A stretch of DNA of 64,000 nucleotides from Comamonas sp. B21-038 (lineage in GTDB: Bacteria; Pseudomonadota; Gammaproteobacteria; Burkholderiales; Burkholderiaceae_C). Made by a program: the position numbers and the translations under genes. Numbering within the stretch: the first letter of the stretch is position 1; the number at the start of each line of letters is the position of its first letter. Under the pieces are notes generated by a model. The model did no database searches. It had not been told where the DNA came from and saw nothing but the letters and a program-made list of their open reading frames with translations. The stretch is from contig NZ_CP092462.1 in assembly GCF_022387135.1 (NCBI RefSeq), forward strand, positions 1,736,001 through 1,800,000. Direction: 5' to 3'. Positions 6,395-38,558 of the stretch are shown here, in pieces.

Positions 6395-8119
6395 ATGCCC
6401 GTTCGTAAAGCCTCGTCGTTGACGATCACCTTGATTTTGCCTTTTGTGATGCTGATCGCATTGCTGACCGGGGTGCTGGGCGTGCTGTGGTACTGGACGG
6501 GCAGCAAGACGGTCTCGATGCTGTCTCAGCAATTGATGGTGGAGATGGCCGAGCGCATCAGCCAGGCGGTGGACCGGCATGTCTTCAGTTCCGGCTCCAT
6601 CATCGAGGCGAGCTTTCCGGCCGGTTTGCAGGCGCCTGACCGGATCGAGGACGATATGCCTGCGCTGCGCACCCGGCTGTGGGCGGCCACGTCGCTGACA
6701 CAGCACCAGGGCGACTATGTCTACTACGGCAACCGCCATGGCCAGGGCATGGGCCTGCTGCGCCGCAATGCAACCCAGGCGGAGCTGCGCATCAAGCTCC
6801 AGGCGCAGGACGTGCGCAGCATCTACCTGCTGCCGGGGATTCAGGCCGAACCCATCTTTCTGTCCCAAGAGTCCCATCTGTTCGATCCGCGCACCCGTCC
6901 CTGGTACCGGCTTGCGCAGGGCGTGGCTGGCCATATCTGGACGCCTGTCTACATCGATTTCAATGCCAAGGACCTGGTGATGACGCGGGCGCGGCAGGTT
7001 TTTGGGCGGGACGGCCAGCCCGTTGGTGTGGTGGCCACCGATGTCTCGCTGAAGGAATTGCGGCTTTTTGTCGATGGCCTGCATTTGTCCGAAGGGGCTC
7101 AGGCATTCCTCATGGAGCCCAATGGCGACCTGGTTGCCGGCACGGGCATGGACAATATCCGCCAGAGCGGTGAGCAGCCGCCCAGCCGGGTCAATGCTGC
7201 CAGCGCGGGCAATCCACTCTTGAAGGCGGTGTACCGGCAGCTGGTCAACGAGTTCTCGCAGTCCAACGAGGTGGCTCGCACGGCGCTGATCTTCGACGCC
7301 AAGGACCATGCGATCGAAGTGGCCTACCGCCGCGTCACCGATGAGGCGGGCCTGAACTGGCTGGCGGTGGTGGCCGTGCCGCACCAGCAGATGCTGGCTG
7401 GCATTCGCGTCCATGTTGTGCTGGTGGTCGCCTTGGGTTTGCTTGCGCTGGGCAGTGCGCTGGCACTGGGGTTGCGCATCTTTGGCGGTTTGGCCAAGGA
7501 CATGCGCTCGCTCACCTATGCGGTGCGCCGTGTCGGGCAAGGTGAAATCGATGTACCGATCGGCGTGGAACGCAACGACGAGATTGGCGAACTGGCCAAC
7601 AATGTCCACCATATGCGGCACCGCTTGTTTACGGATGCGCTCACCGGCGCTGCCAACCGCAGCGCGCTGAACCACATTCTGGAAACCCTGACCCGGCCCG
7701 GCAGCGGCAAGCCTGCCGTGTTTGCGATTCTCTTCATTGATTTGAACCAGTTCAAGCCGCTCAATGACCGCTGGGGCCATGACAACGGTGACCTGGCCCT
7801 GGTCGAGGTGGTGCAGCGCCTCAAGGAAGTACTGCGCAGCAACGATGTGCTGATACGCCTGGGAGGGGACGAGTTTGTCGCCGTGCTGCAGGGCGTCCAC
7901 AGTGATGCGCAGATCCAGGTGGTAAAAGCCAAGATCCTTGAAGCCCTCGCACCGGCGTTGCAGACGCTGAAGGGTTTGCCCGAGGGGGTGGTGGTTCACC
8001 TGGGTGCCTCCATCGGGCAGGCCATCTTTCCGGCCGATGGTGCCGATCCGCAAAGCCTGCTCAAGCACGCGGACCTGGACATGTACAAGAACAAGCAGCG
8101 CAGCGGCCACAGCCGTTGA
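6395..8119 (+). CDS. dCache-HAMP-GGDEF diguanylate cyclase
   Basis: 574-residue inner-membrane sensor. A transmembrane helix (about 12-33) is followed by a periplasmic double Cache-like domain (about 40-335, with DPRTRPWYRLA), a second transmembrane helix (about 340-365), a HAMP segment and a C-terminal GGDEF domain. The catalytic motif is intact (G490-G491-D492-E493-F494), and an RxxD inhibitory site (R481-D484) sits exactly five residues before it, so an active, product-inhibited c-di-GMP synthase is predicted. A Cache domain usually binds small organic ligands; the ligand is unknown. No Shine-Dalgarno is visible before ATG 6395. The preceding 576 bases are gene-free. Confidence 0.9.
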   Translation: MPVRKASSLTITLILPFVMLIALLTGVLGVLWYWTGSKTVSMLSQQLMVEMAERISQAVDRHVFSSGSIIEASFPAGLQAPDRIEDDMPALRTRLWAATSLTQHQGDYVYYGNRHGQGMGLLRRNATQAELRIKLQAQDVRSIYLLPGIQAEPIFLSQESHLFDPRTRPWYRLAQGVAGHIWTPVYIDFNAKDLVMTRARQVFGRDGQPVGVVATDVSLKELRLFVDGLHLSEGAQAFLMEPNGDLVAGTGMDNIRQSGEQPPSRVNAASAGNPLLKAVYRQLVNEFSQSNEVARTALIFDAKDHAIEVAYRRVTDEAGLNWLAVVAVPHQQMLAGIRVHVVLVVALGLLALGSALALGLRIFGGLAKDMRSLTYAVRRVGQGEIDVPIGVERNDEIGELANNVHHMRHRLFTDALTGAANRSALNHILETLTRPGSGKPAVFAILFIDLNQFKPLNDRWGHDNGDLALVEVVQRLKEVLRSNDVLIRLGGDEFVAVLQGVHSDAQIQVVKAKILEALAPALQTLKGLPEGVVVHLGASIGQAIFPADGADPQSLLKHADLDMYKNKQRSGHSR

Positions 8120-32927: not shown

Positions 32928-33665
32928 ATGAGTCAAAAAGTGGCCTACGTAACCGGCGGTATGGGAGGCATTGGGACGGCCATTTGCCAGCGCTTGCACA
33001 AGGATGGATTCAAGGTCATTGCGGGCTGCGGGCCCACGCGCGATTTCCAGAAATGGCTCGGTGAGCAAAAGGCGCTGGGCTATGAGTTCCACGCTTCTGT
33101 TGGCAATGTCGGCAACTGGGAGTCTACGGTGGAAGCCTTCAGCAAGACCAAGGCTGAACATGGCAGCATCGATGTGCTGGTGAACAATGCCGGCATCACC
33201 CGGGACCGCATGTTCATCAAGATGACGCCAGAGGACTGGCAAGCGGTGATCGAAACCAACCTGAACTCCATGTTCAATGTGACCAAGCAGGTCGTCGCCG
33301 ACATGGTGGAAAAGGGCTGGGGCCGCATCGTCAACATCAGCTCCGTCAACGGCGCCAAGGGCCAGGCGGGCCAGACCAATTACTCTGCCGCCAAAGCAGG
33401 CATGCATGGTTTCTCGATGGCTTTGGCCCAGGAACTCGCTGGCAAGGGTGTCACCGTCAACACGGTCAGCCCCGGCTATATCGGTACCGACATGGTCAAG
33501 GCCATCCGCCCCGATGTGCTGGAGAAGATCGTCGGCACCATTCCGATGAAGCGCCTGGGCGAACCGACCGAGATCGCTGCGATCATTGCCTGGTTGGCAT
33601 CGGAGGATGGCGGTTATGCGACCGGTGCGGAGTTCTCGGTCAACGGTGGTTTGCATACCCACTGA
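32928..33665 (+). CDS. phaB: Acetoacetyl-CoA reductase
   Basis: 245-residue short-chain dehydrogenase reducing acetoacetyl-CoA to (R)-3-hydroxybutyryl-CoA with NADPH. TGGMGGIG is the dinucleotide site, NNAG follows at about 88-91, and catalytic Y152 and K156 lie in YSAAKAG, with the serine in NISSVNG. The PhaB-typical GYIGTDMV and C-terminal SVNGGLH are present. A canonical AAGGAG ribosome site precedes ATG 32928. A terminator follows directly. Confidence 0.95.
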   Translation: MSQKVAYVTGGMGGIGTAICQRLHKDGFKVIAGCGPTRDFQKWLGEQKALGYEFHASVGNVGNWESTVEAFSKTKAEHGSIDVLVNNAGITRDRMFIKMTPEDWQAVIETNLNSMFNVTKQVVADMVEKGWGRIVNISSVNGAKGQAGQTNYSAAKAGMHGFSMALAQELAGKGVTVNTVSPGYIGTDMVKAIRPDVLEKIVGTIPMKRLGEPTEIAAIIAWLASEDGGYATGAEFSVNGGLHTH

Positions 33666-35456: not shown

Positions 35457-35639
35457 ATGCAACACCAACTGCAAACCAATTTGGATTCCTTGAACAACCA
35501 TGGGTTCGGACGTGCAGGTTTGGAGACGCCCGCCTATGTGACGGAGGTGCTGGCAGCACTGCTCACTACCCCCAGTGCCAACGACGATGGCAGCTACGTG
35601 GACCTGGCCCAACGCGTTCGCGAAGGTGGCGAGTGGTAA
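35457..35639 (+). CDS. Orphan 60-residue protein
   Basis: Short acidic protein with no membrane segment and no recognised domain; the C-terminal half contains NDDGSYVDLAQRVREGGEW. Support for a real gene is its own GGGAGCG ribosome site 4 bases before ATG, an ORF-free surrounding, a small hairpin just after the stop (35640-35657) and a classic terminator at 35708-35730. Function unknown. Confidence 0.55.
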   Translation: MQHQLQTNLDSLNNHGFGRAGLETPAYVTEVLAALLTTPSANDDGSYVDLAQRVREGGEW

Positions 35640-35707
35640 GGCGCTGAACAAGAGCGCCAGATTCCGGTACCGGTTGACTGACGAAACTCGCATCGCATTA
35701 ACGCGAT

Positions 35708-35730
35708 AGGCAGCTTGGGCTGCCTTTTTT
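35708..35730 (+). terminator. Terminator after the 60-residue gene
   Basis: Seven-bp stem AGGCAGC/GCTGCCT (35708-35714/35719-35725) with a 4-base loop and six T residues. Confidence 0.85.
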
Positions 35731-35732
35731 GT

Positions 35733-35762
35733 TTGCGGTGCAATGCCTAGCCATGCGACAAT
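35733..35762 (+). promoter_or_regulatory. Candidate promoter of the structured RNA
   Basis: TTGCGG (35733-35738) and GACAAT (35757-35762) are separated by 18 bases. Initiation would fall near 35768-35770, at the first paired bases of the RNA described next. Match to consensus is only moderate (3/6 and 4/6). Confidence 0.4.
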
Positions 35763-35765
35763 GGC

Positions 35766-35950
35766 GGGCTATTTGATGCAGCGCAAAAAAATGCGGTTTT
35801 TGCAGCTCAGGCCCTTGAGGCCATGGCCCCGCCAGCCAGGGGCCGGCGATGGCCCCGGCCTGGAGCTGCGCTGCAATCCCTTGACCGCCCTGGTCCGAGC
35901 TAGGGCTTTGCGCCGTAGATGCTTCCAAATACATAGCATCAATACCCGTA
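35766..35950 (+). ncRNA. Candidate structured non-coding RNA, 6S-like architecture
   Basis: About 180 bases whose two ends pair: 35766-35779 with 35936-35947 (12 bp, two single-base bulges). Inside lie a 7-bp hairpin (35783-35789/35797-35803), a long GC-rich stem built of 35802-35813/35857-35869 (one bulged G), 35819-35824/35849-35854 and 35825-35830/35839-35844, and a small 3'-side hairpin (35887-35891/35902-35906). Closing stem, open middle, long apical stem and small 3' hairpin recall 6S RNA, which binds sigma70 polymerase. The unit has promoter-like boxes and its own terminator and no credible ORF. The 6S assignment is inference from architecture only. A competing hairpin (35918-35922/35936-35940) could open the closing stem. 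Confidence 0.5.
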
Positions 35951-35977
35951 CAAATGCGCGCTACGGGCTATTTTTTT
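35945..35977 (+). terminator. Terminator upstream of ygiQ
   Basis: Stem CCCGTA/TACGGG (35945-35950/35962-35967) with an 11-base loop, then CTA and seven T residues. It shares its first three bases with the closing stem of the structured RNA, so the two folds are alternatives during transcription. Confidence 0.65.
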
Positions 35978-36044
35978 AGAATATCGGACCCTGCCACCGC
36001 TGGCACCGAGCCCCGCGTGCATTACTCCACGACTGTTGTTGCCC

Positions 36045-38558
<2,514 letters not shown>

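What the first reader, a model, noticed from the sequence alone, without database searches (positions are those of the whole stretch)
35733..35977. Autonomous structured RNA upstream of ygiQ with 6S-like architecture
The sequence shows ends that pair over 12 bp, a long interrupted GC-rich apical stem of about 24 bp, a small hairpin on the 3' side, moderate -35/-10 boxes at the expected distance, and a T7-tailed hairpin at the end. A separate terminator stands upstream. Closing stem, bubble and apical stem are known features of 6S RNA; calling it 6S is inference. A local hairpin (35918-35922/35936-35940) competes with the closing stem, so a fold switch is possible.
Basis: partly seen in the sequence, partly recalled or inferred. 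Interest (0 to 1): 0.75.

Follow-up and report, generated by a model that had tools for sequence, protein, structure and literature searches.

The report
Oxygen-regulator-linked small RNA gene, not 6S
The stretch before ygiQ looks like a small independent RNA gene of one Comamonas clade whose start carries a binding site of the type used by the oxygen-sensing regulator FNR; it is not 6S RNA, and its 3' end may pair with the FNR messenger, which is only a lead.

Summary
The elements described are there, but the 6S reading fails. RF00013 does not match 35500-36200 at E<=10. The genome's own 6S candidate lies at G000:C1:745668-745830 (28.3 bits, below the 46.4 cut-off), with the 6S core shared by its relatives. 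The strong fold is largely private: z -3.7 here, +0.3 to -1.8 in seven orthologues, and no counted pair covaries. The GC-rich middle is unconserved (145 to 63 nt).

Conserved in 8 of 53 genus genomes, before ygiQ: an extended -10 (TGCGACAAT), a ten-base spacer of fixed length but no fixed base, the 14-mer TTGATGCAGCGCAA, and a 3' hairpin block. The 14-mer fits the FNR/FixK operator and recurs before a universal-stress-protein gene in 6 of the 8; the genome encodes FNR. Best reading: an FNR-box-controlled small transcript, predicted to be repressed by FNR. Its 3' block is complementary (10-12 bp core) to the fnr ribosome-binding site in six carriers, not in two; this is a lead only.

The parts
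35708..35730 (+). intrinsic terminator of the upstream unit
   Evidence: scan hit; hairpin visible in the 8 carriers
35733..35738 (+). weak -35-like hexamer TTGCGG
   Evidence: sequence; weakly conserved, spacing 16-18 between carriers by eye
35754..35762 (+). extended -10 TGCGACAAT
   Evidence: 9 of 9 bases invariant in 8 carriers; the same 9-mer is the -10 of 20 of 30 genus fnr promoters read, all 20 in non-carriers
35763..35772 (+). 10-base spacer with the predicted start of transcription near 35769
   Evidence: length fixed in 8 of 8, 0 of 10 bases invariant; start inferred from the -10
35773..35786 (.). 14-bp FNR/FixK-type operator TTGATGCAGCGCAA, predicted at about +5 to +18
   Evidence: exact in 8 of 8 carriers; fits TTG(A/C)-N6-(T/G)CAA (PMC5582078 passages); also before a usp gene in 6 of 8 carriers
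   Evidence: 14 of 145 bases invariant; 63-146 nt long in the carriers
35932..35955 (+). conserved 3' block CATAGCATCAATACCCGTACAAAT, complementary to the fnr ribosome-binding site in six carriers
35941..35977 (+). terminator-like hairpin AATACCCGTA/TACGGGCTATT with T tail
   Evidence: the 9 counted stem pairs are invariant in 8 of 8; T tail degraded in G008 and G068
35977..35982 (+). candidate -10 TAGAAT of ygiQ
   Evidence: TAGAATATCGG 10 of 11 bases invariant; inference
36045..38558 (+). ygiQ, radical-SAM protein gene (fixed neighbour, not part of the RNA)
   Evidence: Radical_SAM_N, Radical_SAM, DUF3362

Best explanation
Window 35754-35977 is a small, untranslated transcription unit of about 209 nt, specific to one Comamonas clade. 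An extended -10 starts it near 35769 and a hairpin ends it near 35977. The conserved 14-mer at 35773-35786 is an operator for an FNR-family regulator (most likely the genome's own FNR), placed just downstream of the start, where a bound dimer would block transcription. Predicted behaviour: RNA made when oxygen is plentiful, shut off when FNR is active. Shown by computation: conserved elements, fixed spacing, shared 14-mer, an FNR gene, lack of a covarying fold. Inferred: that it is transcribed, that FNR binds, the sign of the effect, and any RNA function.
For: Carried by 8 of 53 genus genomes, found without mismatch by two separate patterns; all 8 align through the ygiQ start. Conservation is patchy in the way of operators: -10 9/9, spacer 0/10 at constant length, 14-mer exact in 8/8, middle 14/145; flanks for comparison 23/61 upstream and 25/57 in the rest of the ygiQ leader. 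The 14-mer matches the FixK2 consensus and differs by one spacer base from the FixK2 site of nosR. It occurs exactly upstream of a universal-stress-protein gene in 6 of 8 carriers and of a response-regulator gene in G000. G000 encodes FNR (NF008365, 239.9 bits, over its cut-off of 228). In the 30 genus fnr loci fetched, TTGA-N6-TCAA sits at -41.5 (29) or -40.5 (1) of a [GC]ACAAT -10, which supports both element types in this genus. No conserved reading frame: the ATGCAGCGC frame is 6-67 codons long across carriers.
Against: No transcript data. The degenerate operator pattern is not rare (11 in the window, 6.0 expected), and the box here is the GCAA variant, not the TTGA-N6-TCAA form found at fnr. 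7 of 23 exact 14-mer copies in the carriers lie in coding sequence, and the usp sequence shown is identical in G000 and G067, so the six are not all independent. An RNA role for the 14-mer is not excluded: RNAalifold pairs TGCAGCGC with GCGCTGCA of the middle, present in 6 of 8 carriers, though without two-sided changes. The -35 is weak and the promoter scan finds nothing. The T tail is degraded in 2 of 8 carriers, so termination there may leak into ygiQ. Narrow distribution: 2 of 399 sampled family genomes match the 3' pattern, both of them carriers.
Confidence: 0.6

Rival explanations
1. A ygiQ leader rather than a free RNA: transcription from the FNR-box promoter runs into ygiQ and the end hairpin attenuates it, so that oxygen tunes a radical-SAM enzyme.
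For: Directly upstream of ygiQ in the same direction in all 8 carriers; T tail degraded in G008 and G068, which favours read-through.
Against: A conserved -10-like TAGAAT follows the hairpin; T7 tail in four carriers and T5 in two; the consensus fold shows no alternative pairing that would open the hairpin.
Confidence: 0.2
2. A member of the 6S RNA family that binds RNA polymerase.
For: Stable rod-like fold of this one sequence.
Against: No RF00013 match at E<=10; nothing overlapping the element for model R1; separate 6S candidate elsewhere; fold energy not conserved; no covariation.
Confidence: 0.02
3. Only DNA-level control elements are under selection (FNR operator, promoter, ygiQ promoter and a dyad ATACCCGTA-N11-TACGGGCTAT bound by another regulator); the RNA is a by-product.
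For: The hairpin stem is invariant without any compensatory change in 8 of 8, and the hairpin stays where the T tail is lost; this fits a protein-bound dyad as well as an RNA hairpin.
Against: A hairpin with a T5-T7 tail at the end of a promoter-led unit is what a terminator looks like in six of eight carriers.
Confidence: 0.15

Closest known systems
FnrS (E. coli) and PhrS (P. aeruginosa), sRNAs controlled by FNR/ANR (PMC5703892 passages)
   Same: small RNA gene under an FNR-type oxygen regulator
   Different: FnrS is induced in an FNR-dependent way and PhrS depends on ANR; here the box lies downstream of the predicted start, so repression is predicted. No sequence relation was tested beyond the Rfam scans.
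FixK2 box of B. diazoefficiens nosR, TTGATCCAGCGCAA (PMC5582078 passages)
   Same: 13 of 14 bases, differing only in the unspecified spacer
   Different: the nosR box lies 40.5 bp upstream of a start and is needed for expression; here it lies at about +5 to +18
6S RNA (RF00013)
   Same: small gene between other genes, stable fold in this genome
   Different: no covariance-model match, no conserved architecture, a better candidate elsewhere

Membership tests
6S RNA (RF00013) | match to the covariance model | tested here: not met
   no match in 35500-36200 at E<=10; at gathering score the whole window gives only a tRNA
6S RNA (RF00013) | conserved closing stem, central bubble and apical stem | tested here: not met
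   middle 14 of 145 invariant; z +0.30 to -1.79 in 7 of 8, though -2.71 and -2.24 in two of them without the end hairpin; no covarying pair
6S RNA (RF00013) | genome's 6S gene at this locus | tested here: not met
   G000 hit at C1:745668-745830, 28.3 bits, E 0.00145, below cut-off; 28 of 37 genus genomes searched have one hit, and in the six carriers among them it is not the ygiQ locus
6S RNA (RF00013) | binds sigma-70 RNA polymerase and templates pRNA | not testable with these tools
   needs biochemistry
FNR/FixK-type operator | TTG(A/C)-N6-(T/G)CAA | tested here: met
   TTGATGCAGCGCAA, exact in 8 of 8 carriers; consensus from PMC5582078 passages; the pattern alone is common, 11 in the window against 6.0 expected
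FNR/FixK-type operator | cognate regulator in the genome | tested here: met
   FNR at G000:C1:742474-743193, NF008365 over cut-off, Crp helix-turn-helix
FNR/FixK-type operator | position that allows control of a promoter | tested here: inconclusive
   fixed 10 bases after the -10, suits repression; the activation position (-41.5) is empty here though filled at fnr
FNR/FixK-type operator | bound by FNR in the cell | not testable with these tools
   needs ChIP or footprinting
trans-acting base-pairing sRNA | own promoter and terminator | tested here: inconclusive
   conserved -10 and hairpin, weak -35, no promoter in the scan, T tail lost in 2 of 8
trans-acting base-pairing sRNA | conserved pairing with an mRNA start region | tested here: inconclusive
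   fnr: -19.6 to -22.7 kcal/mol in six carriers, -9.6 and -5.8 in two; 1 of 240 random windows as good with accessibility in G000; another site wins in G007
trans-acting base-pairing sRNA | transcript detected, Hfq or ProQ bound | not testable with these tools
   no expression data

The most novel reading that the evidence does not exclude
A two-sided FNR switch: FNR shuts off the RNA gene through the box at +5..+18, and the RNA, through CAUAGCAUCAAUACCCGUACAAAU, covers the ribosome-binding site and start codon of fnr mRNA. Each would silence the other, giving a sharp, possibly bistable oxic/low-oxygen decision in the six-genome core of this Comamonas clade.
Probability: 0.17. Interest if true: 0.7.

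Novelty: new member of a known kind. Interest (0 to 1): 0.42.

Why it matters
If the RNA is made and obeys FNR, it would add an oxygen-linked small RNA in Comamonas; my one library search for Comamonas with small-RNA terms listed three papers, none about Comamonas small RNAs by title and abstract start. If it also represses fnr, it would be a compact mutual-repression loop around a global regulator, testable with one deletion and one reporter. It also shows how a good-looking single-sequence fold and a '6S-like' outline can come from an operator half-site plus a GC-rich, fast-changing insert.

Tried and rejected
6S membership: rejected. In one search RF00013 reached E<=0.05 in 7 of the 10 fetched 6S loci; the G000, G014 and G008 loci did not, so the 6S call at 745668 rests, the shared neighbourhood (cobalamin riboswitch in 9 of 10 loci) and the aligned 6S core. 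Model R1 contains the G000 6S locus, so it cannot test that locus; it was used only on the window and the eight ygiQ loci. It gave three matches, none over the element: window 7707-7832 (16.5 bits, E 0.0093), L100 2555-2631 (6.9 bits, E 2.4), window 33262-33276 (4.5 bits).

Leader peptide at ATGCAGCGC: rejected, no conserved frame. Fold switch between closing stem and local hairpin: the local hairpin is kept in 79% of cells, without covariation. Repeat family or second copy: no second match to either end pattern in the own genome. The 14-mer as an RNA seed for other mRNAs: set aside when 16 of 23 exact copies proved non-coding or unassigned, six of them before one usp gene; not fully excluded.

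fnr pairing: kept as a lead only. With the 36-nt block 61 of 16,184 windows of G000 DNA were as good (the element's own complement was not removed there); with the 24-nt core 3 of 16,179 (own complement removed as far as two motifs catch it). Per carrier against the window's DNA: G000 3, G007 16, G014 5, G018 5, G008 1,724 and G068 3,933 of 4,264 windows as good (own complement not removed; G067 and G020 not run, their cores being equal to G000's). It fails in G008 and G068 and is not the best site in G007 once accessibility counts. The core was chosen after the match was seen. ACGGGTATTGAT with at most one mismatch occurs 8 times in G000, against 7 for the reversed pattern, so it is not enriched; one is the RNA gene, one is fnr, and six lie in or against open frames.

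Class II FNR activation of the RNA: rejected, no box in the expected place.

Full report
WHAT WAS CLAIMED AND WHAT IS THERE. The promoter-like hexamers, the upstream terminator, the T7-tailed hairpin and the local hairpin are in the sequence at the stated places. The closing stem is 7 contiguous pairs, 12 only with a bulge. This one sequence folds better than its dinucleotide shuffles (-92.9 against -75.8 kcal/mol, z -3.84).

IT IS NOT 6S. At gathering scores the window holds only a tRNA, and RF00013 does not hit 35500-36200 at E<=10. A first own-genome search at E<=0.001 found no 6S at all. With a permissive threshold one hit appears at G000:C1:745668-745830 minus (28.3 bits, E 0.00145, below the 46.4 cut-off). 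Of the 37 genus genomes searched, 28 have one such hit, none over the cut-off; of 24 genomes of other families of the order, 21 have at least one, 16 over it. In 9 of 10 fetched genus loci a cobalamin riboswitch lies nearby. Aligned with relatives that include strong hits of other families, the G000 sequence has the shared core (TTGAACCAAT, GGTTCAGGATG). A model from that alignment finds nothing over the element in the window or in the eight carriers' ygiQ loci; its best window hit is elsewhere (7707-7832, 16.5 bits).

THE FOLD IS LARGELY PRIVATE. A search with window 35640-36200 over 61 genomes, then two separate patterns over 53 genus genomes, give the same eight carriers without mismatch: G000, G007, G014, G067, G018, G020, G008, G068. 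Two further genomes match the 5' pattern with 3 mismatches and not the 3' pattern. In 399 sampled family genomes (five of them of this genus) only two match the 3' pattern, both carriers. In genome contigs (84,980 species) four records hold the 5' pattern exactly: Comamonas sp. BIGb0152, C. odontotermitis S00124, Comamonas sp. JUb58 and C. koreensis KCTC 12005 (the tool warns that the window's own genome or near ones may be left out), identical over the element to G020, G068, G007 and G067. Folding each carrier gives z -3.67, -0.70, -1.47, +0.30, -1.07, -0.18, -1.37, -1.79, in the order G000, G007, G014, G067, G018, G020, G008, G068; without the end hairpin -4.16, -1.08, -2.24, +0.26, -1.13, +0.02, -1.77, -2.71. 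So G068, and weakly G014, keep some excess stability, with a different and, in G068, much shorter middle. RNAalifold finds no pair with changes on both sides; its consensus is the end hairpin plus TGCAGCGC/GCGCTGCA, the latter intact in 6 of 8. The closing stem has 6 invariant pairs and one broken in 2 of 8. The 9 counted pairs of the end hairpin are invariant.

WHAT IS CONSERVED. Over the eight carriers: extended -10 TGCGACAAT 9 of 9 bases; the following ten bases 0 of 10, at constant length; the 14-mer TTGATGCAGCGCAA exact in all eight (an aligner gap makes it 13 of 14); the middle 14 of 145, with length 63-146; CATAGCATC 7 of 9; the hairpin 27 of 32; TAGAATATCGG 10 of 11; for comparison 23 of 61 upstream of the -10 and 25 of 57 in the rest of the ygiQ leader. 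A fixed distance through unconserved sequence is what a promoter with a DNA operator looks like, rather than an RNA helix. There is no conserved open frame.

THE 14-MER AS OPERATOR. It fits TTG(A/C)-N6-(T/G)CAA, the FixK2 box, and differs in one spacer base from the nosR box TTGATCCAGCGCAA (PMC5582078, passages; found, in which the exact 14-mer itself occurs in no paper). The eight carriers hold 23 exact copies: 8 at this locus, 6 upstream of a universal-stress-protein gene (box centre 115-116 bases before its ATG), 1 upstream of a response-regulator gene in G000, 1 unassigned, and 7 in coding sequence (protein families, run on the G000 copies; coding or not was judged from open frames). The usp flanks differ, except that G000 and G067 are identical over the stretch shown, and an open frame of the opposite strand also begins near the box, so the box might serve that gene instead. 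G000 encodes FNR (NF008365 over its cut-off). As an internal yardstick, the 30 fnr loci fetched (48 of 53 genus genomes had a match) each hold TTGA-N6-TCAA at -41.5 (29) or -40.5 (1) relative to a [GC]ACAAT -10; 20 of the 30, all non-carriers, have TGCGACAAT itself, while the carriers' own fnr promoters have CACAAT (six) or GACAAT (two) (the script asked for these two motifs 25-33 bases apart). So both element types are plausible parts of promoters in this genus. At the ygiQ locus the activation position is empty, and the box instead lies at about +5 to +18, which suits repression (inference).

A POSSIBLE TARGET: FNR ITSELF. The fnr leader of G000 reads ATTTGTTCACGGGTATTGATACATG; ACGGGTATTGAT is the complement of window 35938-35949, and ATTTGT and ATG extend it. 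Core duplex energies are -22.7 to -19.6 in six carriers and -9.6 and -5.8 in G008 and G068. The G000 core against 22 non-carrier fnr leaders averages -8.3, best -13.4. In G000 DNA 3 of 16,179 windows are as good for the core, but 61 of 16,184 for the longer block (own complement not removed). Counting the cost of opening both RNAs, the G000 site scores -9.5 and 1 of 240 random windows does as well. In G007 another site wins, and the best sites in G008 and G068 (-4.6, -3.1) are not the ribosome-binding site. The 12-mer is not enriched in the genome: 8 sites with at most one mismatch against 7 for the reversed pattern. The pairing region overlaps the terminator stem, which is invariant even where fnr no longer pairs, so that stem is conserved for another reason. 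The core was delimited after seeing the match. This is a lead, not a finding.

MECHANISM. Most likely: oxic cells transcribe the unit; active FNR blocks it at the box; the RNA ends at the hairpin before ygiQ starts from its own -10. Shown: elements, geometry, clade, shared 14-mer, FNR gene. Inferred: transcription, binding, sign, function.

KNOWN RELATIVES. FnrS is an FNR-dependent and PhrS an ANR-dependent sRNA (PMC5703892 passages). A search for 'fnr mRNA' with sRNA returned 0 papers, and for ygiQ with small RNA three, none about this region by title and abstract start. A search for Comamonas with small-RNA terms returned three, none on Comamonas small RNAs by title and abstract start. For '6S RNA' with Comamonadaceae there was one paper, on Bordetella, whose passages I saw. 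A search for FNR-repressed small RNAs listed six papers that I did not open. For a library of open papers only, this is weak evidence of absence.

I also added the z-scores without the hairpin, the consensus helix that touches the 14-mer, the reversed-pattern control, and the exact share of TGCGACAAT.

Noticed in passing
L145-L174, fnr promoters: All 30 genus fnr promoters fetched carry an FNR box at -41.5 or -40.5 of a [GC]ACAAT -10; the 22 non-carriers have a further TTGA half site directly after the -10, reminiscent of the ygiQ-upstream unit.
   Followed up: partly
L117, L119, L075, L115, L118, L122: A universal-stress-protein gene has the exact operator 14-mer 115-116 bases before its start in six carriers, a possible FNR-regulated gene.
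   Followed up: partly
L008-L012, L016, L018 upstream of ygiQ: Non-carriers have other sequence before ygiQ, including (by eye) an inverted-repeat-like stretch and a conserved GCAAGACCTTGC..TGCAAGG motif before a TACACT -10.
   Followed up: no
L051-L060: The 6S candidate of Comamonas lies under 1 kb from a cobalamin riboswitch and, in G000, about 2.5 kb from the fnr start; it scores below the Rfam cut-off, so 6S may be under-annotated in this genus.
   Followed up: partly
window 7707-7832: Weak match (16.5 bits, E 0.0093) to the lineage 6S model, over a TTGAACCAGTTCAA palindrome; probably chance.
   Followed up: no
window 35457-35639: Small 60-aa open frame upstream of the first terminator, without a Pfam match; similar C-terminal letters are visible upstream in some relatives.
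   Followed up: no
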